Shown here piece by piece: positions 4,283 through 63,119 of a stretch of 64,000 nucleotides of DNA. Numbering within the stretch: the stretch's first letter is position 1; the number at the start of each line of letters is the position of its first letter. The notes under the pieces are model-generated. The model worked only from the letters and a program-made list of their open reading frames with translations. It had not been told where the DNA came from and made no database searches. Source of the stretch: Spirosoma aerolatum (GTDB lineage Bacteria; Bacteroidota; Bacteroidia; Cytophagales; Spirosomataceae); contig NZ_CP020104.1 of NCBI RefSeq assembly GCF_002056795.1, forward strand, positions 1,933,001 to 1,997,000. The letters run 5' to 3'. The position numbers were made by a program, and so were the translations under genes.

Positions 4283-4368
4283 TTTACGATTTTCGGTATT
4301 CAGTTTGCGATTTTCAGAGCCGGGCCGTAAAAGTCCGCTTCTTGCCAACGTAAACCGAAAACGCTAAA
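4283..4368. repeat. Weak word-like inverted repeat, ribBA-trxA gap
   Basis: Arms 4283-4303 and 4349-4368 match at about 14 of 20 positions, around a shared core TTTTCGGT. The words ATTTTCGGTATTCAG resemble the GTTTTCAG words of the perfect copy at 53736-53818, so I read this as a decayed member of the same class. The right arm ends just before the ribBA stop codon. Confidence 0.45.
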
Positions 4369-4374
4369 CTTGCC

Positions 4375-5682
4375 TTATTGTTCCTCATTCACCGGTTCGT
4401 TCAGAATGGTATGGCCCATTTTATCCCGTTTGGTTTGGAGATATCGTTTGTTGTGCGGGTTGGAGGGAATTTCGATGGGTACAGTGTCGACAATTTCAAG
4501 GCCATACCCCATCAAACCAGCCCGTTTCTTCGGATTGTTGGAAATTAGCCGCAGTTTGCGGATACCCAGGTCACGAAGAATCTGAGCGCCAACTCCATAA
4601 TCGCGGGCGTCCATAGGAAGTCCTAGTTCCAGGTTGGCTTCTACGGTATCGCGGCCCATTTCCTGAAGTTTATACGCCTTGAGTTTGTTCAGCAGGCCAA
4701 TACCCCGACCTTCCTGAAACATATACAGCACAACGCCTTTCCCTTCGGCTTCCACCATTTTCATAGCTTCGTGAAGCTGAGCACCGCAGTCGCAGCGGCA
4801 GGAGCCGAAGATGTCGCCGGTCACACAGGAAGAATGCACGCGTACCAGAACAGGTTCGTTAGGCTCCCAGCTGCCTTTAATGAGCGCCAGGTGTGTGTCG
4901 CCAGTGTTACTTTGTTTATAGGCAATCAGATCAAAATGGCCCCATTCAGTGGGCAGATCGACGCCAATTTCCCGGTGAATAAGTGTCTCAGTCTGGAGTC
5001 GGTATTCAATCAGATCCTGAATACTAATCAGTTTCATGTCGAAACGGTCGGCCATGACGCGCAATTGCGGTAAGCGGGCCATGGTTCCGTCTTCATTCAG
5101 AACCTCGATCAGTACACCGGCTGGCGAAAGACCAGCCAGCCGCGCCAGATCGATAGCCGCTTCGGTATGCCCCGATCGTCGAATCACACCACCTTCGGCC
5201 GCACGTAACGGAAATATATGACCAGGGCGCCCCAGATCGTCGGGTGTAATGGTTGGATCGACCAACGCCTGAATGGTTTTAGCCCTGTCGGAAGCCGAAA
5301 TACCGGTTGTACAACCATGACCTAATAAGTCGACCGAAACCGTAAATGGCGTGGTATGAACCGACGTATTGCTGGTAACCATCATATCCAGGCCCAGTTC
5401 ATTGCAGCGTTCCTGAGTAAGCGGAACACACATCAGTCCACGGGCTTCGCGGACCATAAAGTTGACCATCTCGGGCGTAACCATTTCGGCCGAACAGATC
5501 ATATCCCCTTCATTTTCGCGATCTTCATCGTCAACGACAATCACAATTTTACCCGCCTTAATATCCGCAACAGCCTCTTCGATAGTATTGAGTCGAATCG
5601 GTGTTGCGTCGGACGGGGATAACTCGTAGCCAGAGGCAGATTCTTGCTGTGTGGCGTCAGAGTTGGTACTATTATTGCTCAT
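4375..5682 (-). CDS. ribBA: Bifunctional 3,4-dihydroxy-2-butanone 4-phosphate synthase / GTP cyclohydrolase II
   Basis: Supplies both riboflavin precursors: the RibB half makes dihydroxybutanone phosphate from ribulose 5-phosphate, and the RibA half opens GTP. From the ATG at 5682 it has 435 residues. The RibB acidic motif [10 protein letters not shown] is at residues 51-60, followed by the RARGLMC-like segment ([11 protein letters not shown]) and the [10 protein letters not shown] region. The RibA half carries the zinc cysteines in [18 protein letters not shown] and the [13 protein letters not shown] loop. An in-frame GTG at 5760 would add 26 low-complexity residues; I prefer the ATG because the catalytic domain starts near residue 30 either way. 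Its 5' region is too short to hold an FMN riboswitch. Confidence 0.95.
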
Positions 5683-5865
5683 CTTTTTTGGTCTATGCGT
5701 ATCAGTAAAACTATCTTTGGTAGTGCTTAGCCGGTCGCCTACTAGTTCAATGGGAGACACAGGCTCCTGTTTAATCGGAAAACTGAATTTTAGAAAGATA
5801 CGTTTCGCAGGATGCGAAAATGTCTGTTATTCCGTTTAAAGCATAGATGCGATAATTATATAAGA

Positions 5866-8567: not shown

Positions 8568-8648
8568 TTTGTAAGTTTGTCGTTCGTAGGTTGCTGTTGG
8601 TATAGGTCCTTGTTAACTATGACAAACGTCAAACTGCGGACGCAAACG
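8568..8648. repeat. Possible degenerate word-like inverted repeat
   Basis: The ybaB-glycosyltransferase gap contains repeated GTTTGTAAGTTTGTCGTTCG-type words, answered near the right end by their approximate complement (GACAAACGTCAAAC, then CGCAAACGTT). Pairing is poor. I list it because its position and vocabulary match the better copies in this window. Confidence 0.3.
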
Positions 8649-8652: not shown

Positions 8653-9687
8653 ATGGATTTGGATAGTCTTGCCATTGTTATTCTGAATTACAACGGTCAG
8701 CCGTTTTTAGCGAAGTTTCTGCCTAACGTATTGGCTCATGCCGACGGACATCCGGTTTATGTGGCAGATAGTGCATCTACGGATGGATCGGTCTCTTTTC
8801 TGCGAACTGCTTTCCCTACCGTTCGGGTAATCGAACTGCCTAAAAATGAAGGCTATGCCGGAGGGTATAACCGGGCTCTCGACCAGATTCGATCCGGCTA
8901 TGGAGGAGCTACTTATTATGTACTGCTCAATTCAGATATCGATGTGACCCCCAACTGGCTGTCGCCTGTGGTATCCTTATTTGATGCGAATCCAAAGCTG
9001 GCAGCCTGCCAACCCAAAATCCGGTCGTATAGCCAGCCCGACTTGTTTGAACACGCGGGTGCTGCCGGGGGCTTTATCGATTGGTTGGGTTATGTATTCT
9101 GTCGGGGTCGCGTTTTTGCAACCTTCGAGGCCGATCGGGGCCAATATGATGATAATAGCCCCGTATTCTGGGCAACAGGTGCCTGTCTGTTTGTCCGATC
9201 ATCCGTATTTCATCAAACCGGTGGATTCGATGCGGCTTTTTTTGCCCATATGGAAGAGATTGACTGGTGCTGGCGTGTTCAGCGGCTTGGCTATGCGGTT
9301 TGGACCTGTGGCCAATCGACTGTATACCATGTAGGTGGTGGGACACTTCATAAATCGAATCCCCACAAAACCTTTCTTAATTACCGGAACAGCCTGTTCA
9401 TGCTCTATAAAAACTGGCCCTCAGATGGTTGGTTATGGCCTAAAATCCTGCTACGGTTGATACTGGACGGCGTATCGTCGTTACTGTTCATGAAAGAGGG
9501 GCAATGGCCTGATGTATGGGCAATTTTGCGGGCGCACTTCGCTTTTTATGGTAAGCTACCAACCTTACACCGCCAACGAAACGAATTGAAGCGGCAACAG
9601 CTAAAAGAAGTTCAGGTATACCCCACTAGTATTGTGTGGCAATACTTCGCTAAAGGTAGAAAGACGTTTCAGGAGATATATGAATAA
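8653..9687 (+). CDS. Family 2 (GT-A) glycosyltransferase, rhamnosyltransferase-like
   Basis: A cytoplasmic GT-A enzyme of 344 residues that transfers a sugar from a nucleotide sugar, probably in polysaccharide or lipid-linked glycan assembly. Seen are the N-terminal strand LAIVILNYNGQ, DSASTDGS near residues 36-43, the metal-binding region LLNSDIDVTP near 98, and the acceptor-side motif GGFDAAFFAHMEEIDWCWR around residue 200. This order is typical of GT2 rhamnosyltransferase-like proteins. The C-terminal part has two hydrophobic amphipathic segments but no clear membrane anchor. Its TAA stop lies inside the left arm of the inverted repeat 9681-9770. Confidence 0.92.
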   Translation: MDLDSLAIVILNYNGQPFLAKFLPNVLAHADGHPVYVADSASTDGSVSFLRTAFPTVRVIELPKNEGYAGGYNRALDQIRSGYGGATYYVLLNSDIDVTPNWLSPVVSLFDANPKLAACQPKIRSYSQPDLFEHAGAAGGFIDWLGYVFCRGRVFATFEADRGQYDDNSPVFWATGACLFVRSSVFHQTGGFDAAFFAHMEEIDWCWRVQRLGYAVWTCGQSTVYHVGGGTLHKSNPHKTFLNYRNSLFMLYKNWPSDGWLWPKILLRLILDGVSSLLFMKEGQWPDVWAILRAHFAFYGKLPTLHRQRNELKRQQLKEVQVYPTSIVWQYFAKGRKTFQEIYE

Positions 9688-9770
9688 TGTATAATATAAG
9701 ATGTAGGGTGTAGGATGTAAAGTGCCTGTTTTTGTTCATAGAGCATACATCCTATATCATACATTATTTA
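9681..9770. repeat. Word-like inverted repeat carrying both stop codons of converging genes
   Basis: Arms 9681-9707 and 9744-9770 match at 23 of 27 positions. The words are AATAATGTAT and AGGATGTA/GATGTAGGG. The TAA of the glycosyltransferase (9685-9687) and the TAA of the minus-strand PspC gene (9768-9770) are both inside arms at near-symmetric positions. It may also act as a bidirectional terminator, although no long T run follows. Confidence 0.75.
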
Positions 9771-13618: not shown

Positions 13619-13651
13619 AAAATAGGGAATTGTTACTGCTGCAACGTAATG

Positions 13652-13740
13652 CGGGCAAGATGTCCGCATGGTCCATACGATTACAGACAGAGCTGTGGCC
13701 TACCGTTGTCGCAGTTTTAACTATGCGGACATTCTGTCCG
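13652..13740. repeat. GC-rich inverted repeat between SDR and dehydrogenase genes
   Basis: Arms 13652-13669 and 13723-13740 match at 15 of 18 positions, with the word GTCCGCAT. It fills the gap between two codirectional sugar genes and ends next to the SDR stop codon, as other repeats in this window do. A related GCGGGC/GCCCGC hairpin (56194-56210) precedes the FAH-fold gene. Confidence 0.6.
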
Positions 13741-13742
13741 AG

Positions 13743-14534
13743 TTAGTTTGCGTTGGCTAAAGCCCGGTCGAGGTGAACATAACCCCCATCGACATAGAGC
13801 AGTTGACCCGTAGTGTGACTTGAGCGGGGCGACAACAGGAATACTGTTGTATTGGCAATCTCTTCGGCTGTGGTCATCCGATTTTCAAGCGGGATATTTG
13901 CCACAATAGAGGCTAGTTTGTCTTCGGGATTCGGTAGCGTCTGAATCCAGCGTTCGTATAGGGGTGTCCAGCATTCGGCTACGATGATGGCATTGACCCG
14001 AATGCCATATTTGAGCAGTTCAACGGCCCACTCACGAGTCAGCGCATTGCGGCCACCGTTTGCCGCTGCGTAAGCGGACGTTCCTCCCTGACCTGTTTCG
14101 GCGGTTTTAGAACTAATGTTGACAATCGCTCCTTTGGATTCTTTTAAGGCGGGTAGGGCGTAGTGGACAATCAGGTAATAATGTACCAGATTTTTGTGCA
14201 GTGAAGCCATAAATGCTTCGTAATTGCCATGTTCAAGACCAACACCATCGTTGACGCCAGCATTGTTGACCACACCGTCGATGCGTCCGAACTGTTGCAG
14301 GACAGCATTTACTGCTTTTTCCGATTCCTCGGGTTTCGTGAGTTCGGCCGCGACCTGAAAAGCCTGTTGCCCGGCAGCTTCCAGTTCTGCTACCACCTTT
14401 AGGTTATCGGCTTCATTACGGCCAATAATTACCGGAATGGCTCCTTCGCCTGCCAGCACTTTAACTATGCCTTCGCCAATACCTTTAGCGCCACCTGTAA
14501 CGATGATAACCTTGTTTTGCAGTTGTAAATCCAT
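13743..14534 (-). CDS. SDR family oxidoreductase, L-fucose dehydrogenase-like, with Asn in place of catalytic Lys
   Basis: A classical-length SDR of 263 residues. The cofactor motif is TGGAKGIGEG near residues 13-22, followed by NNAGVNDG (about 90-97), SSKTAETGQGG and the Tyr-containing SAYAAANGG. The canonical YxxxK is Y-A-A-A-N: the Lys is Asn, read directly from the DNA (codon AAC). The C-terminal RVNAIIVAECWTPLYERW resembles enzymes annotated as L-fucose dehydrogenase in nonphosphorylating fucose pathways. It lies between a cupin gene and a zinc dehydrogenase in a cluster with a FucP-like permease. Activity may be altered or the Asn may be subfamily-specific. Confidence 0.88.
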   Translation of the reverse strand: MDLQLQNKVIIVTGGAKGIGEGIVKVLAGEGAIPVIIGRNEADNLKVVAELEAAGQQAFQVAAELTKPEESEKAVNAVLQQFGRIDGVVNNAGVNDGVGLEHGNYEAFMASLHKNLVHYYLIVHYALPALKESKGAIVNISSKTAETGQGGTSAYAAANGGRNALTREWAVELLKYGIRVNAIIVAECWTPLYERWIQTLPNPEDKLASIVANIPLENRMTTAEEIANTTVFLLSPRSSHTTGQLLYVDGGYVHLDRALANAN

Positions 14535-17705: not shown

Positions 17706-17711
17706 GTACTA

Positions 17712-17770
17712 GACGTGAGTAGCGAGGAGTGCGAATGGCCAGACTATTCGCACTCCTCGCTACTCACGTC
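17712..17770. repeat. Perfect 25-bp word-like inverted repeat
   Basis: Arms 17712-17736 and 17746-17770 are perfectly complementary, with a 9-nt loop GGCCAGACT. The words GTGAGTAGCGAGGAGTGCG and the loop-proximal GAATGGC are shared with copies at 59478-59573 and 63024-63119. After the right arm the vocabulary continues as CACTCCTGA. It lies between the SPFH gene and its small downstream partner. Confidence 0.85.
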
Positions 17771-17786
17771 TCACTCCTGAAAAGAG

Positions 17787-19917: not shown

Positions 19918-19986
19918 TGACAGGATTAGCAGGATGGACAAGATTTTCTGACTGTCTTAAGCCTAACCATCCGGTTAACCCTGTCA
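19918..19986. repeat. Word-like inverted repeat, coaX-tsaB gap
   Basis: Arms 19918-19945 and 19959-19986 match at 21 of 28 positions. The words are TGACAGG-N-TTA and GGATGG. The right arm reaches to within 10 bp of the tsaB stop. Confidence 0.65.
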
Positions 19987-20685: not shown

Positions 20686-20696
20686 GATGTAAAGAG

Positions 20697-20774
20697 TGAA
20701 GAGTGCGGGATGTAAAGCGAAGAGCAACCCGCTGCGTCAGCCGTTATTCTTCGCTTTACATCCCGCACTCTTCA
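20697..20774. repeat. Perfect 27-bp word-like inverted repeat
   Basis: Arms 20697-20723 and 20748-20774 are perfectly complementary, separated by 24 nt. The words are AAGAGTGCGGGATG and AAAGCGAAGAG. It lies 4 bp downstream of the S41 peptidase gene and 11 bp upstream of tsaB, both leftward, so the hairpin would be in the mRNA between them. Confidence 0.85.
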
Positions 20775-20778
20775 TTTT

Positions 20779-22437
20779 CTACTTGCTTTTTAAAATTGAC
20801 TGGTATCGTCCCATATCTTTAAACAGATCGAGGGCCGCTTTAAGCTCGGGATCGGTGGAAAAAGATGCCTCCTTAATCCCTTTTTGCAGGTAATAATGCC
20901 CTGCAATCTCCTGTTCCAGTAATGTCCGAATTTCGGTTTTGAAGGTATTCAGGTCGGCGTCTTTGCTATGCGACATCTTGGTTTTCAGCGACTTCAACTG
21001 ATCCTGAATCTGATCAAAATATTTCTCTTTCTTGGCCGAAGCTTCGAGTGTGCCCAGATCTTTTTCAACCTGAGTAGTGTAATCGTATTCTTTGTCGGCC
21101 AGCCATTTGGTGAACTCAGCATACTCCGCGTCGGTCAGCTTGAACTCACGGGCGGGTTTGATGGTGGGATGATCGTGGTGGTATTTGACCGCGTAATCGA
21201 AGATTAATCCCTTATTGGTCAGGCTGAGCGCAATAGGCGTTGGCGTTTGAGCATCAATAACTACGTCGGGCAGAACCCCACCTCCGTCGTATACAACACG
21301 ACCCGCTTTGGTTTTGAACGCTGTTTTCAGCGAATCTGGGATTTTGCCTACGCTGCCGTCTGGGTTGCGATGGCTATAATCGATGGCCTGAATACAACGA
21401 CCACTGGGTATGTAGTATTTGGCCGTGGTGATTTTCAATTTTGTATTAAACGATAGTTCGCGCGTGGTTTGTACCAGTCCTTTGCCATACGTACGCTGCC
21501 CAATCAACACGCCCCGGTCGTAATCCTGAATAACCCCCGACACGATTTCGGCGGCTGAGGCACTATGGCTGTTGGTTAATACGATGATCGGGATTTCGAG
21601 GTCCAGGGGAGGGTTCAGCGCTGTATAGGTTTTGTTCCATTCGGTCACTTTGCCCTTCGTGGTTACTACTTCCGAATCTTTGGGGATGAACGTATTACAG
21701 ATGTCGATAGCCATGTTGAGCAGCCCACCGGGGTTTTCACGAACATCCAGCACGAGTTTTTTCATGCCCTTACCTTTCAGTTCCTGAAACGCCGACCGGA
21801 CTTCCCGCGAAGCCGTTGCTGTAAAGTCTTTCAGATCGATATACCCCACATCTTCGGAGATCATGCCGTAATAAGGCACATTCGTCATTTTGACCACATC
21901 CCGAACTACACTCAGGTCTACCGGGCTTTTCTCGCCGTACCGTTGCACCGTAAGTTTTACGGCTGTATTGTTTTGGCCTTTCAACAGTTTGCCGGGGTCG
22001 GATTCTTTGATGTTCTTCAGCGTGATTCCGTCAATTTTGATAACTTCATCACCGATACGTAATCCTGACTTTTCGGCTGGGGTACCTTCATACACCATTA
22101 ATACGATGTGCTTTCCCTGACGTTGGCCAATCAGGGCCCCGATACCGTTGTAACGGCCGGTAGTCATGGTCATGTAATCCTCGATTTCATCTTCCGCAAA
22201 GAAGTTGGTATAGGGATCGAGGGCTTTCAGCATCGCGTCAATGCTGGTTTTGACCATCCGGTTCGGATTTACCTCATCGACATAATATAAATTCAGCTCT
22301 TTGAAGAGCGTAGCGTAGATGTCGAGGTTACGAGCGATTTCAAAAAACCGGTCATCGGTCTTGAAGGAGAAGAAGCCAATGCCACCCGCTACCAGCGCCG
22401 ACGAGGCTAAAAGAGTAAGGCGTTTAGAAAAGCGCAT
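20779..22437 (-). CDS. C-terminal processing peptidase, family S41 (CtpA/Prc type)
   Basis: A periplasmic serine protease of 552 residues. An N-terminal hydrophobic anchor (LTLLASSALVAGGIGFFSF) is followed by a PDZ domain (IGALIGQRQGKHIVLMVYEG to VQRYG) and the catalytic domain. The Ser is in TNSHSASAAEIVSG and the Lys partner in GQRTYGKGLVQTT. The C-terminal 150 residues are helical, as in Bacteroidota homologues. The ATG at 22437 gives MRFSKRLTLL; the longer frame to 22464 would extend into the repeat. It lies 70 bp from the rnpA stop on the same strand. Confidence 0.93.
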   Translation of the reverse strand: MRFSKRLTLLASSALVAGGIGFFSFKTDDRFFEIARNLDIYATLFKELNLYYVDEVNPNRMVKTSIDAMLKALDPYTNFFAEDEIEDYMTMTTGRYNGIGALIGQRQGKHIVLMVYEGTPAEKSGLRIGDEVIKIDGITLKNIKESDPGKLLKGQNNTAVKLTVQRYGEKSPVDLSVVRDVVKMTNVPYYGMISEDVGYIDLKDFTATASREVRSAFQELKGKGMKKLVLDVRENPGGLLNMAIDICNTFIPKDSEVVTTKGKVTEWNKTYTALNPPLDLEIPIIVLTNSHSASAAEIVSGVIQDYDRGVLIGQRTYGKGLVQTTRELSFNTKLKITTAKYYIPSGRCIQAIDYSHRNPDGSVGKIPDSLKTAFKTKAGRVVYDGGGVLPDVVIDAQTPTPIALSLTNKGLIFDYAVKYHHDHPTIKPAREFKLTDAEYAEFTKWLADKEYDYTTQVEKDLGTLEASAKKEKYFDQIQDQLKSLKTKMSHSKDADLNTFKTEIRTLLEQEIAGHYYLQKGIKEASFSTDPELKAALDLFKDMGRYQSILKSK

Positions 22438-22449: not shown

Positions 22450-22532
22450 ATGTATAATGAACAATGTGTAATGGATAATGGTGACGACAAGCCTGTTAAG
22501 GCATTACTCATTTTACATTATTCACTATACAT
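22450..22532. repeat. Word-like inverted repeat overlapping the end of rnpA
   Basis: Arms 22450-22480 and 22502-22532 match at 25 of 31 positions. The words are ATGTATAATGAA and AATGGATAATG. The right arm includes the rnpA stop (22508-22510) and its last seven codons, so the C-terminal CIVNNVK of RnpA is translated from the repeat. Confidence 0.8.
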
Positions 22533-22935: not shown

Positions 22936-22999
22936 TAGAAGTTAGTCGTTAGTTGTAAGCCATTATCGACTGTCGGCTAACGACTGACAACTAATGACT
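22936..22999. repeat. Word-like inverted repeat in the rpmH-rnpA junction
   Basis: Arms 22936-22960 and 22975-22999 match at about 17 of 25 positions. The words are GTTAGTCGTTAGTTG and ACAACTAATGACTA. The rpmH stop TAG (22998-23000) overlaps the right arm, and the left arm starts 15 bp upstream of rnpA's ATG. Confidence 0.65.
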
Positions 23000-37623: not shown

Positions 37624-40306
37624 GAAAAAGATGTATGATATAGGATGTAGGATGTATGATGGGTTGGCTAGCTATACATCATACACCATACATCATACAT
37701 CACGAATAAGCGTACTTCTGATCGCCATTTCACTGTCCAGTTGCCTGAGTACCAAGCGGCTGGGTATCAATCAATATATCCTGACGGCTCAAACGGTAAA
37801 AGGCAACCGGATTATTTCCCGCGAAAATCTCGAAAGTCTGATTCCCCAGAAGCCAAATCGGCGGGTGCTGGGGTTACCCATTACGCCACCCCTCTGGTTT
37901 TATCAACTGGGCCTACGCCGATACAATCGTGAAAAGGCTGTTCAGGAGTTGGAGGCCAAAACTAATGAATTTGAACAGCAAAGCCAGCAACTAGCCGACC
38001 AACCGAAGGCGCTAAAAAAACTGAATAAACAATATGGCCGCCAACTAAAACGCCTTCGTCTGAAAGCCGAAGAGGGGAACTGGCTGATGCGGAGCCTTGG
38101 CGAACCCCCGTCTTATTTTGCCGAAGCGGATGCCAAGGCCAATACGGCTAAAATGCAGAAGTACTTATCGGACAAAGGGTTCTTCAACGCCCAAACCAGC
38201 TACACCCTCGACACGATTCGTCGGTCGCAGATTCGGGTAAATTATCTGATTCGAGAAAACGAAGGGTTTTATCTACGCAATATCAGTTATCAGATTGCCG
38301 ATCCTCGCGTCGATTCGATTGTACGGCAGTCATTCGACCAGTCAAAACTGAAAGTAGGTGAACGGTTTGATTTCGATAATATGTCGGGGGAGCGACTTCG
38401 GATCGAATCGTTGCTGCGTGATCAGGGCTATTACACGTTTTCACGTCAGTATATCCGGGCTACGGATGTTGATACCATTCGCCGGGGTAATGCCCGTCGG
38501 TATTTGGCAGGCGTTGAACCTGGCGATTCGACGCGCCGTACGGTCGATGTTGACATTCTGATTGCGAATCCACCCGGAAAGTCGTCGCATCCGATTTATC
38601 ATATTGGCGATGTAGATGTTCAAATAAGCCCCAATGCCGATTTAGCCACCAATGGACAGCCCGCCATGATGAGTTCGCTGGATACGGTGAAACGAAACGG
38701 GATTAGCTACATGCTGAGCGGTCAGGACATTTCGCTACGGCTGCTGGAATCAAAAATTCTGCTTCGCCCCAATCAACTCTATAGTCAGACCAACTTTCGT
38801 GATACGCAGCGGCAGTTGTTCATGCTGAATCAGTTTAAATACATCAACCTTACGTTCACGGATACCACCAACCGCCGATTGCATGCGCTCGTAACAGCTA
38901 GTCCCCTAGATAAATACGAAGCTACCGCCGAGGGGGGAGCCACGGGGCTTTTCTACCAGGGGCAAGGGTACCCAGGTGGATTTGGAAGCCTGGTTTTTCG
39001 GGTGCGTAATCTGTTTGGTGGATTGGAAACGTTGGAAACCTCAGTTCGCTATGGGGTAGAAGCCCAGACGGGTTTTGTGCCTGATCCGAATAATTTTAAC
39101 AAAGTCGTGTATGCGTCGCAGGAGTTAGGGGTTAGCAGCTCACTGATTTTTCCGCAAATTTTATTACCGGGTCGCTTTCGCTTCCGCTTTACACCCTATG
39201 CCCCTCGTACTCAGGTAAGCTTAAGCTTTAATAATACCTTTCGCCCTGACTTTCGTCGGTCACTACTTCGGGCCACTATGGCCTATAACTGGCAAACGAC
39301 CCCTGCCAAACAGTTCAATTTTCTGATTGCGGATATTAACCTGATCAACGCTGGCGATGGTACAAATAAGGTCATAAGTCAGGCGTTTTACGATCAATTA
39401 CTAGCTTTAAGAAGCCAGGGAAGCACTGTTTATCTAAACTTTTTTCGGCGCTCTCTGAGTTCAAGTTTTAGTTTCGCTTATACCTATAATACGAATACCC
39501 CTGGCCAGAACCGTCAGGCCAATTTCTTTCGTACGGTTCTGGAGTCAGGTGGGACCACCCTCAATTTCTTTTCTGATAAGACAGTGGCTAGATGGAGTGA
39601 AGAAAATGGGGGTATTGGTGTTCAGCTCTATAAGTTTTTGAGAGCGAGCCTTGATTACCGGCATTACATCCCGATTCGTTCCCGAACGACGCTGGCTTTT
39701 CGGGTCAATACAGGGGTCGCTTATGGATATGGACCGGGAGGAGGCCCTGTTCCTTACGAAAAACTATTCTTTGCTGGTGGCAGCAATAGTGTTAGAGCTT
39801 GGTTACCCAGAAGGCTAGGGCCGGGTTCCGCGTTCCCGTATCAGGCAGGAAATGCGTCAAAACCAGCCATCGATTCCTTAACAGGGCAGTTCAAATATTT
39901 ATTCGAGCAACCCGGTAATATCCTGATTGAAGGCTCAGCCGAACTTCGGGGACGTTTATTTCACCTTGGAGCTGATATCAATGGGGCTGTTTTCATCGAT
40001 GCAGGCAACGTATGGGCGTTTAGAAGCCGTTCGGCTACCGCCGACCAGCCTCGTGCAGGTTCTACCTTTCAATTCGATTCGTTTATTCCGCAAATTGCTG
40101 TCGGTACGGGGGTAGGGTTACGGATCGACTTTTCTTTTTTCGTGATTCGGCTGGATGGTGGCATTAAAGTGTGGGACCCTGCCCGGTTAAATTTGAGTGA
40201 AGCCGAAGGGGGCGGAGCTTTTATCCTTCCAAAGTTCTCGTTGGCTAAATTGTCGAGCGGACCTAATCCGCTGGTAATCAATTTCGGCGTTGGTTATCCG
40301 TTTTAA
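37622..40306 (+). CDS. BamA/TamA-like outer membrane lipoprotein (surface antigen family)
   Basis: An 894-residue protein combining a lipoprotein signal, POTRA-like domains and a C-terminal 16-strand Omp85-type barrel (Bac_surface_Ag). The lipobox is SLSSC (Cys codon 37742-37744). The barrel includes GGSNSVRAWLPRRLGPG, near the VRGF-type signature of Omp85 proteins, and ends VINFGVGYPF with a terminal Phe. Starts at 37622, 37631 and 37652 are possible; all are in or at the edge of the inverted repeat 37630-37701, and no later ATG, GTG or TTG precedes the lipobox. So the signal peptide is partly repeat-encoded. Confidence 0.9.
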   Translation: MKKMYDIGCRMYDGLASYTSYTIHHTSRISVLLIAISLSSCLSTKRLGINQYILTAQTVKGNRIISRENLESLIPQKPNRRVLGLPITPPLWFYQLGLRRYNREKAVQELEAKTNEFEQQSQQLADQPKALKKLNKQYGRQLKRLRLKAEEGNWLMRSLGEPPSYFAEADAKANTAKMQKYLSDKGFFNAQTSYTLDTIRRSQIRVNYLIRENEGFYLRNISYQIADPRVDSIVRQSFDQSKLKVGERFDFDNMSGERLRIESLLRDQGYYTFSRQYIRATDVDTIRRGNARRYLAGVEPGDSTRRTVDVDILIANPPGKSSHPIYHIGDVDVQISPNADLATNGQPAMMSSLDTVKRNGISYMLSGQDISLRLLESKILLRPNQLYSQTNFRDTQRQLFMLNQFKYINLTFTDTTNRRLHALVTASPLDKYEATAEGGATGLFYQGQGYPGGFGSLVFRVRNLFGGLETLETSVRYGVEAQTGFVPDPNNFNKVVYASQELGVSSSLIFPQILLPGRFRFRFTPYAPRTQVSLSFNNTFRPDFRRSLLRATMAYNWQTTPAKQFNFLIADINLINAGDGTNKVISQAFYDQLLALRSQGSTVYLNFFRRSLSSSFSFAYTYNTNTPGQNRQANFFRTVLESGGTTLNFFSDKTVARWSEENGGIGVQLYKFLRASLDYRHYIPIRSRTTLAFRVNTGVAYGYGPGGGPVPYEKLFFAGGSNSVRAWLPRRLGPGSAFPYQAGNASKPAIDSLTGQFKYLFEQPGNILIEGSAELRGRLFHLGADINGAVFIDAGNVWAFRSRSATADQPRAGSTFQFDSFIPQIAVGTGVGLRIDFSFFVIRLDGGIKVWDPARLNLSEAEGGGAFILPKFSLAKLSSGPNPLVINFGVGYPF
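37630..37701. repeat. Word-like inverted repeat encoding the N-terminus of the BamA-like protein
   Basis: Arms 37630-37656 and 37675-37701 match at 23 of 27 positions. The words are GATGTATGAT and AGGATGTA, as in the copy at 9681-9770. Read in the frame of the downstream gene the arms give MYDIGCRMYDG and SYTIHHTS. Confidence 0.8.
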
Positions 40307-40489: not shown

Positions 40490-41962
40490 ATGACACAGAT
40501 TACTGAACTTACTATACTTCAACCAGCTGATAAAGAACAGATTGATTTACCCCGTACGTCTGAAGAGGAACTGGCAGTGGGTAAAAAACGACTGTATATC
40601 GAAAGCTACGGTTGCCAGATGAACTTCGCCGATAGTGAAATCGTAGCCGCCGTGATGCGGAACGCCGGTTTTGCTACTACCTCGTCGGCCGAAGAAGCTG
40701 ATCTGATCTTTTTGAATACCTGTGCCATTCGGGACAATGCTGAGCAGAAAGTTCGTAACCGACTCAAGCATCTGACGGGTCTTAAACGACAGAAACCTGA
40801 ATTGCTGGTGGGTATGCTGGGCTGCATGGCCGAACGGTTGAAAACCAAGCTACTGGAAGAAGAAAAAGTGGTCGATATTGTGGCTGGCCCTGATGCCTAC
40901 CGCGATATTCCGAAACTGGTAGAAGAAGCCGAATCGGGCCAGAAAGCCGTCAATGTGTTTCTGTCTCGCGAGGAAACCTATGCTGATATTTCGCCCATTC
41001 GCCTGAATTCCAATGGTGTTACGGCTTTTGTTTCAATTATGCGGGGGTGCGATAATATGTGCAGTTTCTGCGTGGTACCGTTTACTCGTGGGCGCGAACG
41101 CAGCCGTGATCCACATAGTATCGTTCGGGAAGCACAGGAGCTTTTCGATCAGGGGTACCGCGAAGTGACGCTACTCGGCCAGAACGTGGATAGTTATAAG
41201 TGGCAGGTAGCCGGGAGCGAGGAGCAAGTAGCCGCTAACGCCATTCCCCAAGTACCGAGTCCCCAGCCTTTGGTCACGTTTGCCAACCTCCTCGAAATGG
41301 TGGCACAGATTCACCCTGATTTGCGGGTTCGGTTCTCAACGTCGCACCCCAAGGATATTACGGATGATGTGCTACATACTATGGCCCGCTACGAAAACAT
41401 CTGTAAGTACATTCACCTGCCTGCCCAAAGTGGCAACAGCCGGGTGCTGCGGCTGATGAACCGTACATACGATCGCCCCTGGTATATCGGTAAGATCGAC
41501 CGGATTCGCGAGATTCTGGGCGAGGATTGTGGTATTTCGACCGATATGATTTCGGGCTTCTGTACCGAAACCGAAGAGGAACACCAGGAGTCGCTAACGC
41601 TCATGGACTATGTGCGGTACGATTACGCGTATATGTTTGCCTACTCGGAGCGGCCGGGTACACTGGCTGCTAAAAAGTACACCGACGACATTCCTGAAGA
41701 GGTGAAAAAGCGTCGGCTCAATGAAATTATCGCCCGTCAGTTGGAGCACTCGGCCGAACGGAATCAGCGGCATATTGGTCAGGTGCAACGTGTACTGATC
41801 GAAGGTCCATCCAAACGCTCCGATGAGTTTCTGTGCGGCCGGAATGACCAGAACAAAATGGTCGTATTTCCAAAAGGGGATCATCAGAAAGGCCAGTACG
41901 TCAATGTATTAGTGACCGAATGTACCTCGGCAACGTTGCTTGGCCAGGTAGTTAGTCATTGA
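40490..41962 (+). CDS. miaB: tRNA-2-methylthio-N6-dimethylallyladenosine synthase
   Basis: Radical SAM enzyme that adds a methylthio group at A37 of tRNAs. The 490-residue protein has the N-terminal UPF0004 domain with [12 protein letters not shown] (about residues 38-49), the radical SAM cluster [18 protein letters not shown], and a C-terminal TRAM domain. A 23-residue insert after VDSYKW is Ser/Glu/Gln/Pro-rich and its DNA contains GTAGCC words. The TGA stop (41960-41962) is inside a word-like repeat arm. The ATG at 40490 gives a normal start. Confidence 0.95.
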
Positions 41963-42035
41963 TTGTCATTAGATGGTCATGAGCTTGTATCGGCAACGAA
42001 TGACTGCCTGTTGACTATTAGTGACAGTAAATGAC
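41955..42035. repeat. Word-like inverted repeat containing the miaB stop codon
   Basis: Arms 41955-41980 and 42011-42035 pair with a one-base gap around AGTCAT/GTCATT words (left ATTGATTGTCATTAGATG). The miaB TGA is in the left arm, so its last residues VSH are repeat-encoded. The right arm ends 6 bp before the ATG of the sigma54 activator gene. Confidence 0.65.
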
Positions 42036-43404: not shown

Positions 43405-43502
43405 GTAATGGATAATGAAAAATGGATAATGAAGGATGTCAACAGGAGGCTTCGGTTGCTGCTATACCCATTATTCATTATTCAGTGTTCAGTGTTCATT
43501 AC
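43405..43502. repeat. Word-like inverted repeat encoding the LptE signal peptide
   Basis: Arms 43405-43438 and 43469-43502 match at 26 of 34 positions. The words are AATGGATAATGA and ATTATTCATTATTCAG. In the LptE frame the right arm reads as hydrophobic PLFIIQCSVFIT, which is the core of the signal peptide. Confidence 0.85.
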
Positions 43503-43968: not shown

Positions 43969-44016
43969 TTACGCTTTACGAATTAGGCTTGAAGCCGTAC
44001 TTTCGCAAATCGTAAG
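43969..44016. repeat. Word-like inverted repeat after lptE
   Basis: Arms 43969-43989 and 43993-44016 pair imperfectly. The words are ATTACGCTTTACGAATTAG and TTTCGCAAATCGTAAG. It fills the gap between lptE and the TPR protein gene, whose TTG start follows 24 bp later. Confidence 0.55.
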
Positions 44017-46660: not shown

Positions 46661-48408
<1,748 letters not shown>

Positions 48409-53735: not shown

Positions 53736-53818
53736 GTTTTCAGTTTTCAGTTTTCGGTTTTCAGTTGGTGGTTATGCGCTCTTTTTGAACTGAAAACCGA
53801 AAACTGAAAACTGAAAAC
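53736..53818. repeat. Perfect 31-bp word-like inverted repeat between divergent genes
   Basis: Arms 53736-53766 and 53788-53818 are perfectly complementary, with a 21-nt loop. Each arm is four copies of GTTTTCAG or GTTTTCGG. It begins 4 bp from the lolD-like start and lies in the shared promoter region with sucC. A perfect DNA cruciform could form here. Confidence 0.88.
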
Positions 53819-59477: not shown

Positions 59478-59573
59478 AGGAGGGAGGAGCGAGGAGTGAG
59501 AATGGCTAGGCCGCGTAGACAGAACGCACCGGATGGATTCTTACTCCTAACTTCTCACTCCTAACTCCTAAAA
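59478..59573. repeat. Word-like inverted repeat upstream of transketolase N-half
   Basis: Arms 59478-59503 and about 59537-59573 match at 21 of 26 positions. The words are AGGAGCGAGGAGTGAGAAT and ACTCCTAACTCCTAA. Its left arm starts 7 bp after the bcp stop and its right arm ends 4 bp before the transketolase ATG. It is a sister of 63024-63119. Confidence 0.8.
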
Positions 59574-59576
59574 AGT

Positions 59577-60434
59577 ATGGAACTCGAACAACTCGAACAC
59601 ATTGCTACCGCCGTTCGGCGTGATATTGTCCGCATGGTCGCGGCTGTCAACTCTGGTCACCCAGGTGGCTCATTAGGCTGCACCGATTTTATGGTCGCAC
59701 TCTATTTTGAGATCATGAACCGGAAAAAGGACGACAAAGGGAATCCTGTTTTCGATATGGATGGACGCGATGAAGACATCTTCTTCCTGTCGAATGGTCA
59801 TATTTCTCCCGTATTTTATTCGGTACTGGCTCGGGCGGGTTACTTCCCATTGTCAGAGCTGGCCACGTTCCGTAAGCTGGATAGCCGCCTACAGGGGCAT
59901 CCAACCACTGCCGAGCATCTGCCAGGGGTACGCATCGCATCGGGTTCGCTGGGACAGGGTTTGTCAGTAGCAGCCGGGGCCGCTTACTCGAAAAAACTCA
60001 ACGGCGATAAAAGCCATGTGTACGTGCTCATGGGCGATGGCGAGCAGCAGGAAGGGCAGATTTGGGAGGCTGCTCAGTTTGCGCCCAACAAAAAGCTCGG
60101 TAACCTGACCGCTGTAATCGATTTCAACCACGCACAGATCGATGGTAAAACCGATAACGTAAACAACAACCGCGACCTCGGTGCAAAATATGCTGCTTTT
60201 GGCTGGCACGTCGACGAGATGCAGGGCAACGACATGGCCGACGTAATCAAAACCCTTCGCAAAGCACAGGAAAACCCAGACGTACCTACGTTGATTCTGA
60301 TGCATACTGAAATGGGCTTCGGGGTCGACTACATGGTGGGTAGTTATAAGTGGCATGGCGTAGCGCCAAACGCGGAGCAGCTACAGCAAGCTCTGAATCA
60401 ACTGCCGCTAACTGTAGGTATGTCGGATTATTAA
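59577..60434 (+). CDS. Transketolase, N-terminal (TPP-binding) subunit
   Basis: Half of a split transketolase, a pentose phosphate enzyme that moves two-carbon units. The 285-residue protein carries VNSGHPGGSLGCTDFMVALY, GSLGQGLSVAAGAAYSKKL and the TPP motif GDGEQQEGQIWEAAQFA. The matching C-terminal half lies at 62069-63022, with two unrelated genes between them. In most bacteria with the split form the two halves are adjacent. Confidence 0.95.
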   Translation: MELEQLEHIATAVRRDIVRMVAAVNSGHPGGSLGCTDFMVALYFEIMNRKKDDKGNPVFDMDGRDEDIFFLSNGHISPVFYSVLARAGYFPLSELATFRKLDSRLQGHPTTAEHLPGVRIASGSLGQGLSVAAGAAYSKKLNGDKSHVYVLMGDGEQQEGQIWEAAQFAPNKKLGNLTAVIDFNHAQIDGKTDNVNNNRDLGAKYAAFGWHVDEMQGNDMADVIKTLRKAQENPDVPTLILMHTEMGFGVDYMVGSYKWHGVAPNAEQLQQALNQLPLTVGMSDY

Positions 60435-60439
60435 GATTG

Positions 60440-60518
60440 GTAGAGACGCGATCCCTCGCGTCTCATGACCGGATGGTTTTGGCTGACGCATAGGAGACGC
60501 GAGGTATCGCGTCTCTAC
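60440..60518. repeat. Double palindrome of TAGAGACGCGAT words
   Basis: Left element 60440-60464 and right element 60494-60518 are complementary at 24 of 25 positions, and each is itself palindromic (GAGACGCGA facing TCGCGTCTC). It starts 5 bp after the transketolase stop and ends 9 bp before the ATPase ATG. It may terminate transcription or mark an insertion boundary. Confidence 0.85.
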
Positions 60519-60527
60519 ATAAATCCC

Positions 60528-61496
60528 ATGCAAATCAAACGCTTAGTCATCGAAAATTTCAAGTCCATTGAGCGGATCGAGCTTATTGAGCCGAATCCGT
60601 TCACGGTCTTTGTCGGCCCCAACGGGTCGGGCAAGTCGAATATTTTCGAGGCTCTGGAGTTTGTGCAAACTAGAGTAAATGCAGATACTGCCGTTAGCTT
60701 GTTTGGCGGCCAAGATAAACTCAGGAGGAGACAAAGTCCTGATGGTATTTTTAAGTTCGAGTTTGAGGCAGAGGAGCTGTTATATAGAAGGACGAGCTTG
60801 ACTGGTAATTCGGATATCTTGGATATGGGTAATCATGGTTGGGAGCCTATTAGAAGAGTAAAGGATTTAGCAATTAATTATGATTATCTTCAATTTGATA
60901 GCTTTTCTCGTTTATTCATTAAAAACGGAACTCTAGTAAAATTGCGTCTGAATGACAACAAAAAGCTAGCGTTAGATGCAAGCAATCTAGAGCTAGTATT
61001 AAAGCGAATTCTGTCTGATAAATTATTGAAAGACGAAATCTTTGAGTGGCTTGAGCTATTCGTGCCAGGGTTTAAAGCCGTTGAAGTGGATGATCGGGAT
61101 GAGTTACATTGGTTTGAAGATTCTGTTCCAAATTACTTTACCAAAGACCTTATCTCCGATGGTACCTATAATATTCTGGCTCTTTTAACTGCTGTTTATC
61201 AAAGTGATAAGCCACAGTTTTTGTGCATTGAGGAGCCAGAGAATGGACTACACCCGGATGTAATTAAAGAGTTTGTCAACCTTTGTCGGTATGCTTGTGA
61301 GCAAAAAGATCATTTTATTTGGTTAAATACACACTCGCAAACACTGGCTTCTCAATTGACCGCCGATGAGATTATTGTCGTCGATAAAGTAGAAGGCGCC
61401 ACCCAGACCAAACAATTTAAAGGCCATGATTTCCACGGATTACGGATGGATGAAGCCTGGCTAATGAATGCCTTGGGAGGTGGGCTTCCGTGGTAA
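60528..61496 (+). CDS. ABC-type ATPase (AAA_21 family) of a probable two-gene defence module
   Basis: A 322-residue SMC/RecF-like ATPase. Walker A is GPNGSGKS at residues 30-37 after MQIKRLVIENFKSIE; the signature-like region is LISDGTYNILALLTAVY; Walker B is FLCIEEPENGLHPD; and the H-loop is WLNTHSQTLASQL. No coiled coil is present. It overlaps the next gene by 7 bp, so the two are translationally coupled. This arrangement (AAA_21 ATPase plus TOPRIM partner) resembles abortive-infection systems such as AbiL and PARIS. The gene is AT-richer than the flanking transketolase halves, suggesting acquisition. The ATG at 60528 is used. Confidence 0.88.
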   Translation: MQIKRLVIENFKSIERIELIEPNPFTVFVGPNGSGKSNIFEALEFVQTRVNADTAVSLFGGQDKLRRRQSPDGIFKFEFEAEELLYRRTSLTGNSDILDMGNHGWEPIRRVKDLAINYDYLQFDSFSRLFIKNGTLVKLRLNDNKKLALDASNLELVLKRILSDKLLKDEIFEWLELFVPGFKAVEVDDRDELHWFEDSVPNYFTKDLISDGTYNILALLTAVYQSDKPQFLCIEEPENGLHPDVIKEFVNLCRYACEQKDHFIWLNTHSQTLASQLTADEIIVVDKVEGATQTKQFKGHDFHGLRMDEAWLMNALGGGLPW

Positions 61497-62062
61497 AGAT
61501 TGGATTTATTTGTGAAGGTAAAACCGAGAAAAATATCATTGAGTCAGACAGGTTTCAGCAGTGGCTAAGTCTGAATGGTTTTGAGTGTTCATTGCCGGTA
61601 ATTGATGCAAAAGGCAATGGTAATCTGTTACCGCACAAAATTGAAGCGTTGCGACAGGAGTTACTGGATCGCCATGTTCAGAAAATAGTCATATTAACGG
61701 ATATGGACGTTGACAGTTGTATTACATTGACAAAGCAACGCATTACCGAGCGAGAAGGTCAACTTATCATTGTGGCTGTGAAGCAAATAGAAGCATGGTT
61801 TCTCAGTGATTCGCCTACATTACAAAGTCTATTTGGCGATTCGACTTTTTCGTTCGAATATCCAGAACAAGAAACGAATCCATTCTTTACACTTCAACAA
61901 CTGCTTTTAACGAAAACGAATCGAGGAGTAGGCAGTAAATCTATTTTAGTAAGCCGTATGCTTAAATACGGTTTCACGATTGAAAATGCTGCTCAACATC
62001 CTAATTGCCCGAGTGCCACTTATTTTCTAACTAAATTGCAAACCCTCGCTTCGGCGAATTAA
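61490..62062 (+). CDS. DUF4276/RloB-like TOPRIM protein, probable nuclease partner
   Basis: A 190-residue protein. TOPRIM residues are visible: Glu9 in FICEGKTEKN and the pair Asp71/Asp73 in ILTDMDVDS. The EAWFLSD segment near residues 101-107 corresponds to the EAWLLAD motif of DUF4276/RloB proteins. With the ATPase upstream it probably forms a toxic effector complex triggered by phage. It starts with GTG 61490 and overlaps the ATPase gene. It ends 6 bp before the transketolase C-half, so that gene may depend on its transcript. Confidence 0.82.
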   Translation: MVKIGFICEGKTEKNIIESDRFQQWLSLNGFECSLPVIDAKGNGNLLPHKIEALRQELLDRHVQKIVILTDMDVDSCITLTKQRITEREGQLIIVAVKQIEAWFLSDSPTLQSLFGDSTFSFEYPEQETNPFFTLQQLLLTKTNRGVGSKSILVSRMLKYGFTIENAAQHPNCPSATYFLTKLQTLASAN

Positions 62063-62068
62063 TAGATT

Positions 62069-63022
62069 ATGAAAAAATACGAGTTCACCGAGAAAAAAGA
62101 TACCCGCTCTGGTTTTGGTGCGGGCATTGCCGAACTGGGCAAAACACATCCTAATGTGGTAGCACTGACCGCCGATCTGGCCGGGTCACTCAAGCTCGAA
62201 GCCTTCATTAAAGACTTCCCTGATCGGTTTATCCAGTGTGGTATTGCGGAGGCCAACATGATTGGGGTGTCGGCGGGGTTGACCATTGGCGGGCATATTC
62301 CGTTTGCTACCACGTTTGCCAACTTTGCAACAGGCCGGGTGTATGACCAGATTCGTCAGTCGGTCGCGTATTCGAACAAAAACGTTAAAATCTGTGCTTC
62401 ACACGCGGGCCTGACCCTGGGTGAAGATGGAGCTACGCACCAGATTCTGGAAGATTTGGGCATGATGAAAATGTTGCCCAACATGACCGTCATCAATCCC
62501 TGCGATTATAACCAGACTAAAGCCGCTACCATTGCGATTGCCGATCACGAAGGCCCCGTGTATCTCCGGTTTGGCCGTCCAGTCATTCCTGTATTTACGC
62601 CTGCCGATCAAACGTTTGAAATCGGTAAAGCCTGGACCGTCAATGAAGGAAGTGACGTATCAATTTTCTGTACAGGTCACCTGGTCTGGGAAGCCATTAA
62701 AGCCGGTGAAATCCTGTCTCAGGAAGGAATTGAAGCCGACATTATCAACATTCATACGATTAAGCCGTTAGATGAAGAGGCTATTCTGGCATCGGTGAAG
62801 AAAACGGGCTGTGCCGTTTCGGCCGAAGAGCATATGTTGAATGGTGGTCTGGGCGATAGTGTCGCCCAGGTACTGGCCCGCAATTATCCGGCTCCGCTCG
62901 AATACGTTGGCGTTCATGATACCTTTGGGGAAAGCGGAACTCCTGATCAACTGATGCAGAAATATGGCCTCACTGCCGACAAAATTGTTGAGCAGGTGAA
63001 GAAAGTAATGGCAAGAAAATGA
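62069..63022 (+). CDS. Transketolase, C-terminal subunit
   Basis: The second half of the split transketolase, with the pyrimidine-binding and C-terminal domains (317 residues). Seen are SGFGAGIAELGKTHPNVVAL, QCGIAEANMIGVSAGLTIGG, ASHAGLTLGEDGATHQILED and the last-domain GDSVAQVLARNYPAPLEYVG. It is complete and intact. It is separated from its N-half by the ATPase/TOPRIM pair. A word-like repeat follows directly after its stop. Confidence 0.95.
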   Translation: MKKYEFTEKKDTRSGFGAGIAELGKTHPNVVALTADLAGSLKLEAFIKDFPDRFIQCGIAEANMIGVSAGLTIGGHIPFATTFANFATGRVYDQIRQSVAYSNKNVKICASHAGLTLGEDGATHQILEDLGMMKMLPNMTVINPCDYNQTKAATIAIADHEGPVYLRFGRPVIPVFTPADQTFEIGKAWTVNEGSDVSIFCTGHLVWEAIKAGEILSQEGIEADIINIHTIKPLDEEAILASVKKTGCAVSAEEHMLNGGLGDSVAQVLARNYPAPLEYVGVHDTFGESGTPDQLMQKYGLTADKIVEQVKKVMARK

Positions 63023-63023
63023 G

Positions 63024-63119
63024 TAGTTAGGAGTTAGGAGCGAGGAGTGAGAATCCATTCGGCAGCAACCAGTTTGCGCAAGCCATTCTCTCTCCTCGCT
63101 CCTAAATCCTAACTCCTAA
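63024..63119. repeat. Word-like inverted repeat between transketolase and sigma factor genes
   Basis: Arms 63024-63054 and 63085-63119 match at 27 of the 29 best-aligned positions. The words are TTAGGAGTTAGGAGCGAGG and GAGTGAGAAT. It starts 1 bp after the transketolase stop and ends 7 bp before the sigma factor ATG. It is the closest relative of 59478-59573, about 3.5 kb upstream. Confidence 0.85.

What the first reader, a model, noticed from the sequence alone, without database searches (positions are those of the whole stretch)
4283..63119. A dispersed family of 'phrase-like' inverted repeats fills about eighteen gene junctions
Seen: gaps hold hairpins 70-110 bp long whose arms are runs of 5-9-bp related words. 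Clear members are at 9681-9770, 17712-17770 (25 bp perfect), 19918-19986, 20697-20774 (27 bp perfect), 22450-22532, 22936-22999, 37630-37701, 41955-42035, 43405-43502, 43969-44016, 46661-46760, 53736-53818 (31 bp perfect), 59478-59573, 60440-60518 and 63024-63119. Weaker ones are at 4283-4368, 8568-8648 and 13652-13740. Vocabularies differ between loci, but members of one vocabulary recur. Known from memory: filamentous cyanobacteria carry similar short tandem words (STRR-type). Inference: one process generates word arrays and copies them to the opposite arm, for example by strand switching at a stalled fork or by a transposase acting on palindromes. No matching transposase is in the window.
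Basis: partly seen in the sequence, partly recalled or inferred. Interest (0 to 1): 0.88.

Follow-up and report, generated by a model that had tools for sequence, protein, structure and literature searches.

The report
Seven-letter-word hairpins between Spirosoma genes
Many gaps between genes in this bacterium are filled by long DNA hairpins whose two arms are matching runs of seven-letter words, and at the same gap in related species a hairpin is often still there although its words have been replaced.

Summary
The hairpins are real. Of 18 listed loci, 16 fold better than 199 or 200 of 200 dinucleotide shuffles; 4283 and 43969 do not. A 464-kb sample of the genome holds 104 strong stems against 3 in one shuffle of each stretch. 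They are a mixture. (1) Heptad hairpins: 12 of 18 loci have arms of degenerate 7-bp words. (2) REPIN-like palindromes (60440, 13641); such families flank RAYT-like genes in this genus. At one promoter junction read in 28 genomes of the genus, 21 keep a stem, but with at least three unrelated vocabularies. Arms are held together: within-copy divergence is about half that between copies. The same word hairpin occurs in records of five phyla. Wobble pairs are not significantly favoured, and no transposase tracks the heptad hairpins well. Best reading: STRR-type heptad palindromes kept by arm-to-arm copying and 7-nt slippage, with replacement at reused sites. STRR hairpins and whole-stem replacement in the Nostoc trnL intron are precedents, so this is a new variant of a known kind. 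The copying mechanism is inferred, not shown.

The parts
9683..9768 (.). heptad hairpin (GATGTAT-type words), convergent junction
   Evidence: z -4.4, lag 7 in both arms; G027 keeps it, G020 has no stem there
17711..17771 (.). heptad hairpin (GGAGTGA-type words), 26-bp perfect arms, convergent junction
   Evidence: G027 and G020 keep a hairpin with changed words
20689..20782 (.). heptad hairpin (AGAGTGA-type words), 40-bp arms 88% complementary, tandem junction
   Evidence: different words in G020
22450..22532 (.). heptad hairpin (AATGGAT-type words), tandem junction
   Evidence: z -4.2, lag 7; another hairpin in G020
22936..22999 (.). heptad hairpin (GTTAGTC-type words), divergent junction
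   Evidence: z -5.1, lag 7
37630..37701 (.). heptad hairpin (GATGTAT words), divergent junction; AATGGAT words at this place in the closest relative G027
43405..43502 (.). heptad hairpin (AATGGAT words) between a sigma-54 activator gene and an lptE-like gene
46661..46760 (.). heptad hairpin (AATGAAT words) upstream of a chaperonin gene
   Evidence: z -3.1, reached by 1 of 200 shuffles, lag 7; different words in G020
53736..53818 (.). heptad hairpin (GTTTTCA words), 31-bp perfect arms, divergent junction of an ABC-ATPase gene and sucC
   Evidence: orthologous junction read in 28 genomes, own included
59478..59573 (.). heptad hairpin (GGAGTGA words) between an AhpC/TSA-family gene and a transketolase N-part gene
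63022..63119 (.). heptad hairpin (GGAGTTA words) between a transketolase C-part gene and a sigma-70 gene
4283..4368 (.). weak heptad array (left arm only), stem not significantly better than shuffles
   Evidence: z -1.7, lag 7 left arm
13641..13751 (.). non-heptad palindrome, REPIN-like; resembles (by eye) the GCGGACATCCTGTCCGC palindromes beside a RAYT-like gene of G023
60440..60518 (.). non-heptad REPIN-like palindrome (GTAGAGACGCGA...TCGCGTCTCTAC), 18 further loci in this genome
19918..19986 (.). hairpin with about 9-bp word spacing (ACAGGAT type), not heptad
41955..42035 (.). hairpin with 10-11-bp word spacing (GTCATT words), not heptad
8568..8648 (.). hairpin, z -3.7, no significant 7-bp period

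Best explanation
The word hairpins are STRR-type heptad palindromes: degenerate 7-bp words on the 5' arm and their reverse complement on the 3' arm, nearly filling a gene gap. Shown: excess, period 7, reused sites, vocabulary turnover, arms held together, G-rich 5' arm. Inferred: when the palindrome folds at a replication fork, one arm is copied from the other (intrastrand template switching) while arrays slip by one 7-nt word, so a palindrome stays a palindrome while its words drift and spread along both arms; now and then the whole hairpin is replaced by one of another vocabulary or by a REPIN at the same site. The site persists because a hairpin spacer is tolerated there or mildly useful. 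A separate REPIN-like set is probably moved by RAYT transposases.
For: Excess 104 to 3 in shuffles. Best lag 7 in 12 of 18 listed loci. GGAGTTA-type copies of this genome (25 loci examined, 19 with both cores found, 17 kept): arms differ by 8% within a copy and 17% between copies over the inner 14 nt, 0 of 10,000 permutations as low. sucC junction, 13 anchored genomes: where the right arm differs, 181 of 192 stem cells are paired in both sequences (cells are not independent and the stem finder favours pairs). Stem of score >=10 in 21 of 28 genomes at that junction, with GTTTTCA, GATGAAT/GAAGAAT (one base per word apart) and TTTGTGG words scattered on the tree (labels by eye). Occupancy by stems of any kind, score >=11: of 38 gaps comparable with G020, both have one in 13, own only 5, G020 only 2, neither 18. 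G>C in the 5' arm of 28 of 29 periodic hairpins, against 59 G>C, 34 G<C and 14 ties among the others. No full-length donor for the switched 37630 hairpin in G027: next best match 75%, though many sites share its left arm at 88-96%. Slippage in 7-nt steps has been proposed before for heptanucleotide repeats (passage in PMC4679880).
Against: Single-arm changes are common: in the GGAGTTA copies variants in one arm only outnumber those in both, 19 to 15 (inner 14 nt), 41 to 29 (21 nt), 91 to 37 (28 nt, some flank included); G020 carries uncompensated changes at 53736. Arm copying does not by itself explain replacement by an unrelated vocabulary or by a REPIN at the same spot. GGAGTTA copies share a core and partly align over their whole length, as copies of a mobile element would. 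The wobble test has little power.
Confidence: 0.45

Rival explanations
1. The heptad hairpins are mobile miniature elements (REPIN- or MITE-like), moved as single-stranded hairpins by a Y1 (HuH) transposase in trans; vocabularies are element families.
For: 15 of 20 fetched Y1 loci of the genus have palindromes of score >=12 within 1.5 kb, 12 of these 15 with alike palindromes on both sides by eye (such stems are so common, 109 in 400 kb, that presence alone means little). Copies of the GGAGTTA hairpin recur at 69-81% identity over most of its length. Heptad density is higher in genomes with a subclass-1.2-like Y1 protein: 33 in 880 kb (7 genomes, one with only a 32% relative; own genome gives 17 of the 33) against 11 in 720 kb (9 genomes), Mann-Whitney p 0.039, no correction for kinship. 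10 of 17 genomes with the GGAGTTA hairpin from the contig scan have a relative of that protein.
Against: The flanking palindromes are not heptad arrays (by eye), bar one of 20 subclass-1.2 neighbourhoods (L292). G030 lacks the protein and has 5 heptad-like stems in 80 kb. 7 of 17 scanned genomes lack it, and in a set that overlaps in 16, 3 of 17 have no Y1_Tnp match at all; the seven are MAGs by title, so possibly incomplete.
Confidence: 0.25
2. Selection on RNA: the hairpins work in transcripts as terminators, pause sites or stability elements, and compensatory mutation keeps them.
For: Position tight against genes (median 9 and 4 nt to the flanking ORFs); stems kept in 21 of 28 genomes while the sequence changes; a role in transcript stability or coupling has been suggested for cyanobacterial STRR (PMC2670836, passages read).
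Against: G-U 34 against A-C 24 in tandem-gene heptad stems (p 0.24) and 44 against 39 in other long-loop stems. 11 of 64 heptad hairpins lie in divergent junctions, against 6 of 213 other long-loop and 13 of 217 short-loop stems. Selection gives no reason for a 7-nt period or a G-rich 5' arm.
Confidence: 0.2
3. Allele exchange between species: each junction has several old hairpin alleles, and switches come from homologous recombination in the flanking genes.
For: A switch can lie within well-conserved flanks (37630 in G027, where the change runs some 25 bp past the hairpin on one side); vocabularies are scattered on the tree.
Against: Flank gene trees were not compared junction by junction, so it is untested; it leaves the origin of the vocabularies unexplained.
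Confidence: 0.1

Closest known systems
STRR (short tandemly repeated repetitive) sequences of filamentous cyanobacteria
   Same: Usually 7-bp repeats between genes, able to form hairpins (PMC2670836, passages read). The GGAGTTA palindrome itself is in Nostoc, Calothrix and relatives (28 of the 80 listed loci by record title).
   Different: Here in a Bacteroidota genome, with arms of 25-40 bp that are often near-perfect, many vocabularies in one genome, and gaps almost filled.
P6b stem of the Nostoc trnL intron (Class I TDNGATT, Class II NNTGAGT)
   Same: One site, the stem always built on one of two 7-nt motifs, whole-stem replacement inferred repeatedly (PMC4476775, abstract and passages read).
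   Different: There one intron locus with two classes; here many intergenic sites, more vocabularies, and swaps with REPIN-like elements.
REPINs with RAYT transposases
   Same: Palindromic dimers with a loop, between genes; Spirosoma RAYT-like genes carry flanking palindromes; Bacteroidetes subclasses are described (PMC6006769, passages read).
   Different: REPINs have fixed REP sequences; heptad hairpins do not, and no Y1 locus is flanked by them (by eye).
TAACTGA heptamer repeats (Beggiatoaceae, Cyanobacteria, some Bacteroidetes)
   Same: Intergenic heptamers shared across phyla, often close to start codons (PMC4679880, abstract and passages read).
   Different: Reported as direct repeats of one word, with related heptamers rare as repeats; not word hairpins that change.

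Membership tests
STRR-type heptad repeats | tandem degenerate 7-bp words | tested here: met
   best lag 7 in 12 of 18 loci; arm autocorrelation of the genome sample is highest in z at lag 7
STRR-type heptad repeats | mainly intergenic | tested here: met
   59 of 64 heptad hairpins lie between ORFs, 2 intragenic, 3 unplaced (ORF heuristic, no gene caller)
STRR-type heptad repeats | confined to filamentous cyanobacteria (recalled) | tested here: not met
   same word hairpin in Bacteroidota, Firmicutes, Hydrogenedentes and Chloroflexota records
REPIN | two inverted copies of a fixed REP sequence, many similar copies | tested here: inconclusive
For 60440 the form fits: 18 further loci, the best eight at 84-93%, others down to 71%
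REPIN | cognate RAYT gene flanked by the element | tested here: not met
   for heptad vocabularies none among 20 fetched Y1 loci (by eye). For the GTAACGCGGGTGGAAACCCGCG family it is met at own C1:5894230; for 60440's family no flanked RAYT was seen
Intrinsic terminator | short-loop GC-rich stem followed by a T run, downstream of a gene | tested here: not met
   mostly long loops, and 11 of 64 heptad hairpins in divergent junctions; T runs not scored
Known RNA family (Rfam 15) | match at gathering score | tested here: not met
   0 matches in the window
Nostoc trnL P6b-type stem | stem replacement between heptad vocabularies at one site | tested here: met
   sucC junction in 28 genomes; 37630 and 63022. 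The site is intergenic, not an intron

The most novel reading that the evidence does not exclude
A sequence-independent palindrome-renewing process, paced in 7-nt steps, works in at least five bacterial phyla: it builds heptad palindromes between genes, keeps the arms matched and rewrites their words, so that the site and the fold are inherited while the sequence is not. No dedicated transposase is needed.
Probability: 0.25. Interest if true: 0.85.

Novelty: new variant of a known kind. Interest (0 to 1): 0.62.

Why it matters
The function of STRR and the origin of the trnL stem words are called unknown in the papers read here (PMC2670836, PMC4476775). The same word hairpin is now seen in records of five phyla, and a genus with dozens of genomes offers many orthologous sites where the fold persists and the words are replaced. 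That makes the question testable: does the matching of the arms come from replication, from an enzyme, or from selection on RNA? It also warns that spacer alignments and small ORFs reading into such arrays can mislead.

Tried and rejected
Subclass-1.2-like Y1 protein as the enzyme of the heptad hairpins: suggested by its known restriction to Cyanobacteria and Bacteroidetes (PMC6006769, section read) and by a weak density difference; set aside because its gene neighbourhoods hold other palindromes, G030 is a counter-example, and several heptad-bearing genomes lack it. Density of all long-loop stems does not differ significantly (p 0.15).

RNA selection through the wobble test: no significant asymmetry, also none in short-loop stems (30 to 20, p 0.20), so the test lacks a working positive control; stems of orthologous stretches were counted more than once.

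An exact GATGAAT hairpin pattern in 296 Bacteroidota genomes, own and one congener included: 0 of 296; a control pattern of the same composition also 0 of 296. Exact phrases are sporadic; this says little about the class and gives no support for wide spread of that vocabulary.

Donor search for the switched hairpin in G027: words shared at many sites, no donor copy.

Paper searches for a description in Spirosoma or Bacteroidetes: searches list no paper on heptad-word hairpins there as far as titles and abstract starts tell (open-licence library only).

Rows dropped: sucC loci L075 and L089 (contig ends); six of 25 loci gave no core pair (L337, L342, L346, L354, W17711, W59478); L350 (no stem) and L022b (same locus as L349). 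With those two kept, 28-nt within-copy divergence is 0.231 against 0.306, 0 of 5000 permutations as low. L190 was left out of the foreign set. The 40 stretches that were not listed were not used.

An earlier count said 17 of 20 RAYT loci are flanked; recounting one search gives 15 of 20, which is used here.
Full report
OBSERVATION. The window lies at G000:C1:1933001-1997000 of a 7.96-Mb single-contig genome. Congeners are unnamed, but L190 is Spirosoma fluviale by record title, and contig length and Y1 coordinates of its genome equal those of G026. A stem search of my own (pair +1, mismatch -2, gap -3, no credit for G-T) finds 16 stems of score >=13 in the window and 104 in 464 kb of this genome, window included, against 3 in one dinucleotide shuffle of each stretch. 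Of the 18 listed loci 16 fold better than 199 or 200 of 200 shuffles; 4283 and 43969 do not.

TWO KINDS. In 12 of 18 listed loci the best period of at least one arm is 7: GTTTTCA, GGAGTTA/GGAGTGA, GATGTAT, AATGGAT, GTTAGTC and AGAGTGA words. Octad arrays also occur in the genome sample (six arms at lag 8). Others (60440, 13641, and elsewhere GTCATCCCGACGAAGGAGGGATC types) are not periodic and look like REP dimers. Y1_Tnp proteins are found in 25 of 31 genomes of the genus examined, own included. Of 20 fetched Y1 loci, 15 have palindromes of score >=12 within 1.5 kb, 12 of them alike on both sides by eye, one sequence per locus, for example AGTAACGCGGGTGGAAACCCGCG at own C1:5894230; the other five are three orthologues (own C1:7571280, G020, G027), a subclass-1.2-like locus, and an IS200-like locus with one hairpin 809 bp away. 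Stems of that score are common (109 in 400 kb), so it is the likeness of the two sides that counts. In that 400-kb sample 17 of 109 stems are heptad/octad-like.

PLACE. In 494 stems of score >=12 from about 2 Mb of Spirosoma DNA (some stretches are orthologous to the window, so some sites count more than once), 64 are heptad-like: 38 in tandem, 11 in divergent and 10 in convergent junctions, 2 intragenic, 3 unplaced. Median distances to the flanking ORFs are 9 and 4 nt, against 17.5 and 20 for other long-loop stems and 24 and 28.5 for short-loop stems (ORFs by a length heuristic that tends to extend starts). Divergent junctions hold 11 of 64 heptad, 6 of 213 other long-loop and 13 of 217 short-loop stems, which speaks against a general terminator role.

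SAME SITE, NEW WORDS. The junction of sucC and an ABC-ATPase gene was read in 28 genomes (30 loci, two cut by contig ends). 21 of 28 have a stem of score >=10; seven score 9 or less, among them G003 (L067) and G029 (L066), which has none. The near flanks are conserved, the words are not: GTTTTCA in the own clade, GATGAAT, GAAGAAT and TTTGTGG elsewhere, scattered on a midpoint-rooted FastTree of sucC plus tkt DNA (labels by eye). GATGAAT and GAAGAAT differ by one base per word, so one can drift into the other; the other two are unrelated to them. Around the transketolase N-part gene (30 loci) the gaps hold, by eye, heptad hairpins, GTGCGGATGCCCACGTCCG-type, CGCGGG-type or GTAGAGACG-type palindromes, or nothing clear. 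Among near relatives, 37630 has GATGTAT words in own, G020 and, more loosely, G005, but AATGGAT words in G027; 63022 has GGAGTTA words in own, G027 and G020, GTTTTCA-like words in G017 and a GTAGAGACG palindrome in G008. Occupancy, counting stems of any kind (terminator-like ones included) of score >=11: with G020, of 38 gaps, both 13, own only 5, G020 only 2, neither 18; with G027 18, 0, 4, 16; with G017 (14 gaps) 6, 3, 1, 4; with G005 (13 gaps) 4, 4, 0, 5. Spacer identity in own-stem against own-stemless gaps is 0.71 and 0.75 (G020), 0.86 and 0.83 (G027), 0.63 and 0.62 (G017), 0.59 and 0.64 (G005). So stem presence is kept without extra sequence conservation; the two far relatives are too few to tell.

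ARMS HELD TOGETHER. In 13 sucC sequences anchored at the right flank, 181 of 192 differing right-arm cells are paired in both sequences, against 717 of 842 identical cells; cells share ancestry and the finder favours pairs. In 17 GGAGTTA-type copies of this genome the arms differ by 8% within a copy and 17% between copies over the inner 14 nt, 0 of 10,000 permutations as low; over 28 nt 19% and 27%. Against this, variants present in one arm only are more numerous than those in both (19 to 15; 91 to 37). So arms are held together but not at once. Many of the copies share a core like GAGAATG-CTGACGC and differ in the number and kind of words.

POLARITY. The 5' arm has more G than C in 28 of 29 periodic hairpins (18 of 19 own, 10 of 10 in congeners; some are orthologues), against 59 G>C, 34 G<C and 14 ties in the others. 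A palindrome reads alike on both strands, so this is a property of the element, not of the strand. I have no explanation for it.

OTHER PHYLA. Of the 80 listed, by record title, 28 are cyanobacterial, 21 Bacteroidota, 15 Firmicutes, 12 Hydrogenedentes (one MAG) and 4 Chloroflexota (my count). Many are MAGs, and the Firmicutes and Hydrogenedentes ones all are; Nostoc, Hymenobacter and Spirosoma isolates are among the rest. In 79 of these loci, of 66 further stems that do not touch the pattern, 16 have period 7, 1 period 14 and 2 period 8, often with other words (GGCTGTA, AGTGTGG, GGGGTAT). An exact GATGAAT hairpin was in 0 of 296 Bacteroidota genomes.

MECHANISM. Wobble test: if RNA structure were selected, G-U should exceed A-C among stem mismatches on the sense strand; observed 34 to 24 in heptad stems (p 0.24), 44 to 39 in other long-loop stems and 30 to 20 in short-loop stems. 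No support for RNA selection, but low power. Transposase test: heptad-like stems number 33 in 880 kb (7 genomes, own 17 of the 33) with a subclass-1.2-like Y1 protein and 11 in 720 kb (9 genomes) without (p 0.039, no kinship correction; G030 an exception); its neighbourhoods hold non-heptad palindromes except L292; 7 of 17 scanned heptad genomes lack it and 3 of 17 in a near-identical set lack any Y1_Tnp match. I therefore prefer arm-to-arm copying with 7-nt slippage (inferred), plus occasional replacement, at 0.45.

KNOWN. Cyanobacterial STRR are usually 7-bp repeats and can form hairpins between genes (PMC2670836, passages). In the Nostoc trnL intron the P6b stem is always built on one of two 7-nt motifs and is inferred to have been replaced repeatedly (PMC4476775, abstract and passages). 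REPINs (PMC3116915, passages), GTAG/CGTC repeats (PMC3733652, passages) and RAYT subclasses (PMC6006769, passages and one section) cover the second kind. TAACTGA heptamers shared by Beggiatoaceae, Cyanobacteria and Bacteroidetes (PMC4679880, passages) are direct repeats of one word; the same passages report an earlier proposal that 7 nt may be set by polymerase slippage. What I did not find in print (listings of an open-licence library) is the genome-wide version with word replacement at orthologous gaps in Bacteroidota.

Noticed in passing
window 60525-62062: A two-gene cassette (AAA_21-type ATPase and a 190-aa protein without Pfam match) separates the two transketolase parts in this genome; in 8 of 30 loci of the genus the second part seems to follow the first directly (read by eye from the start of the next gene).
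   Followed up: partly
L275-L294 (20 loci): Genes of the subclass-1.2-like Y1 protein, said in PMC6006769 to be generally without typical terminal IS200 structures, have a stem of score >=10 close outside the gene in about 15 of 20 loci by eye (GTCGCTAACGCGAC, CTACCGACGCC...CCCTACGGGAC, GCCCTGAAAGGGC types).
   Followed up: partly
L017 (own C1:2500001-2520000) and L018: Dense cluster of GTCATCCCGACG...CGTCGGGATGAC palindromes, eight in the 20 kb of L017; between copies the inner word seems to change together at all four places of the dimer (by eye). No flanked transposase was seen for it in this genome.
   Followed up: no
loops of 60440, G027's 63022, L336-L345, and L145/L170 (Prevotellaceae MAGs): The loop or inner-stem word GGCTGACGC/GCGTCAGCC, or a near form, recurs across different arm vocabularies and in Prevotellaceae hairpins; enrichment not tested.
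   Followed up: no
L068, L074, L082-L084, L090 upstream of sucC: At this junction the sucC-side arm is nearly uniform among species while the other arm carries more variation (by eye).
   Followed up: no
own C1:7571280 (L115), L119, L120: A RAYT-like protein of 214-217 aa conserved in the three nearest genomes with no stem of score >=12 within 1.5 kb.
   Followed up: no
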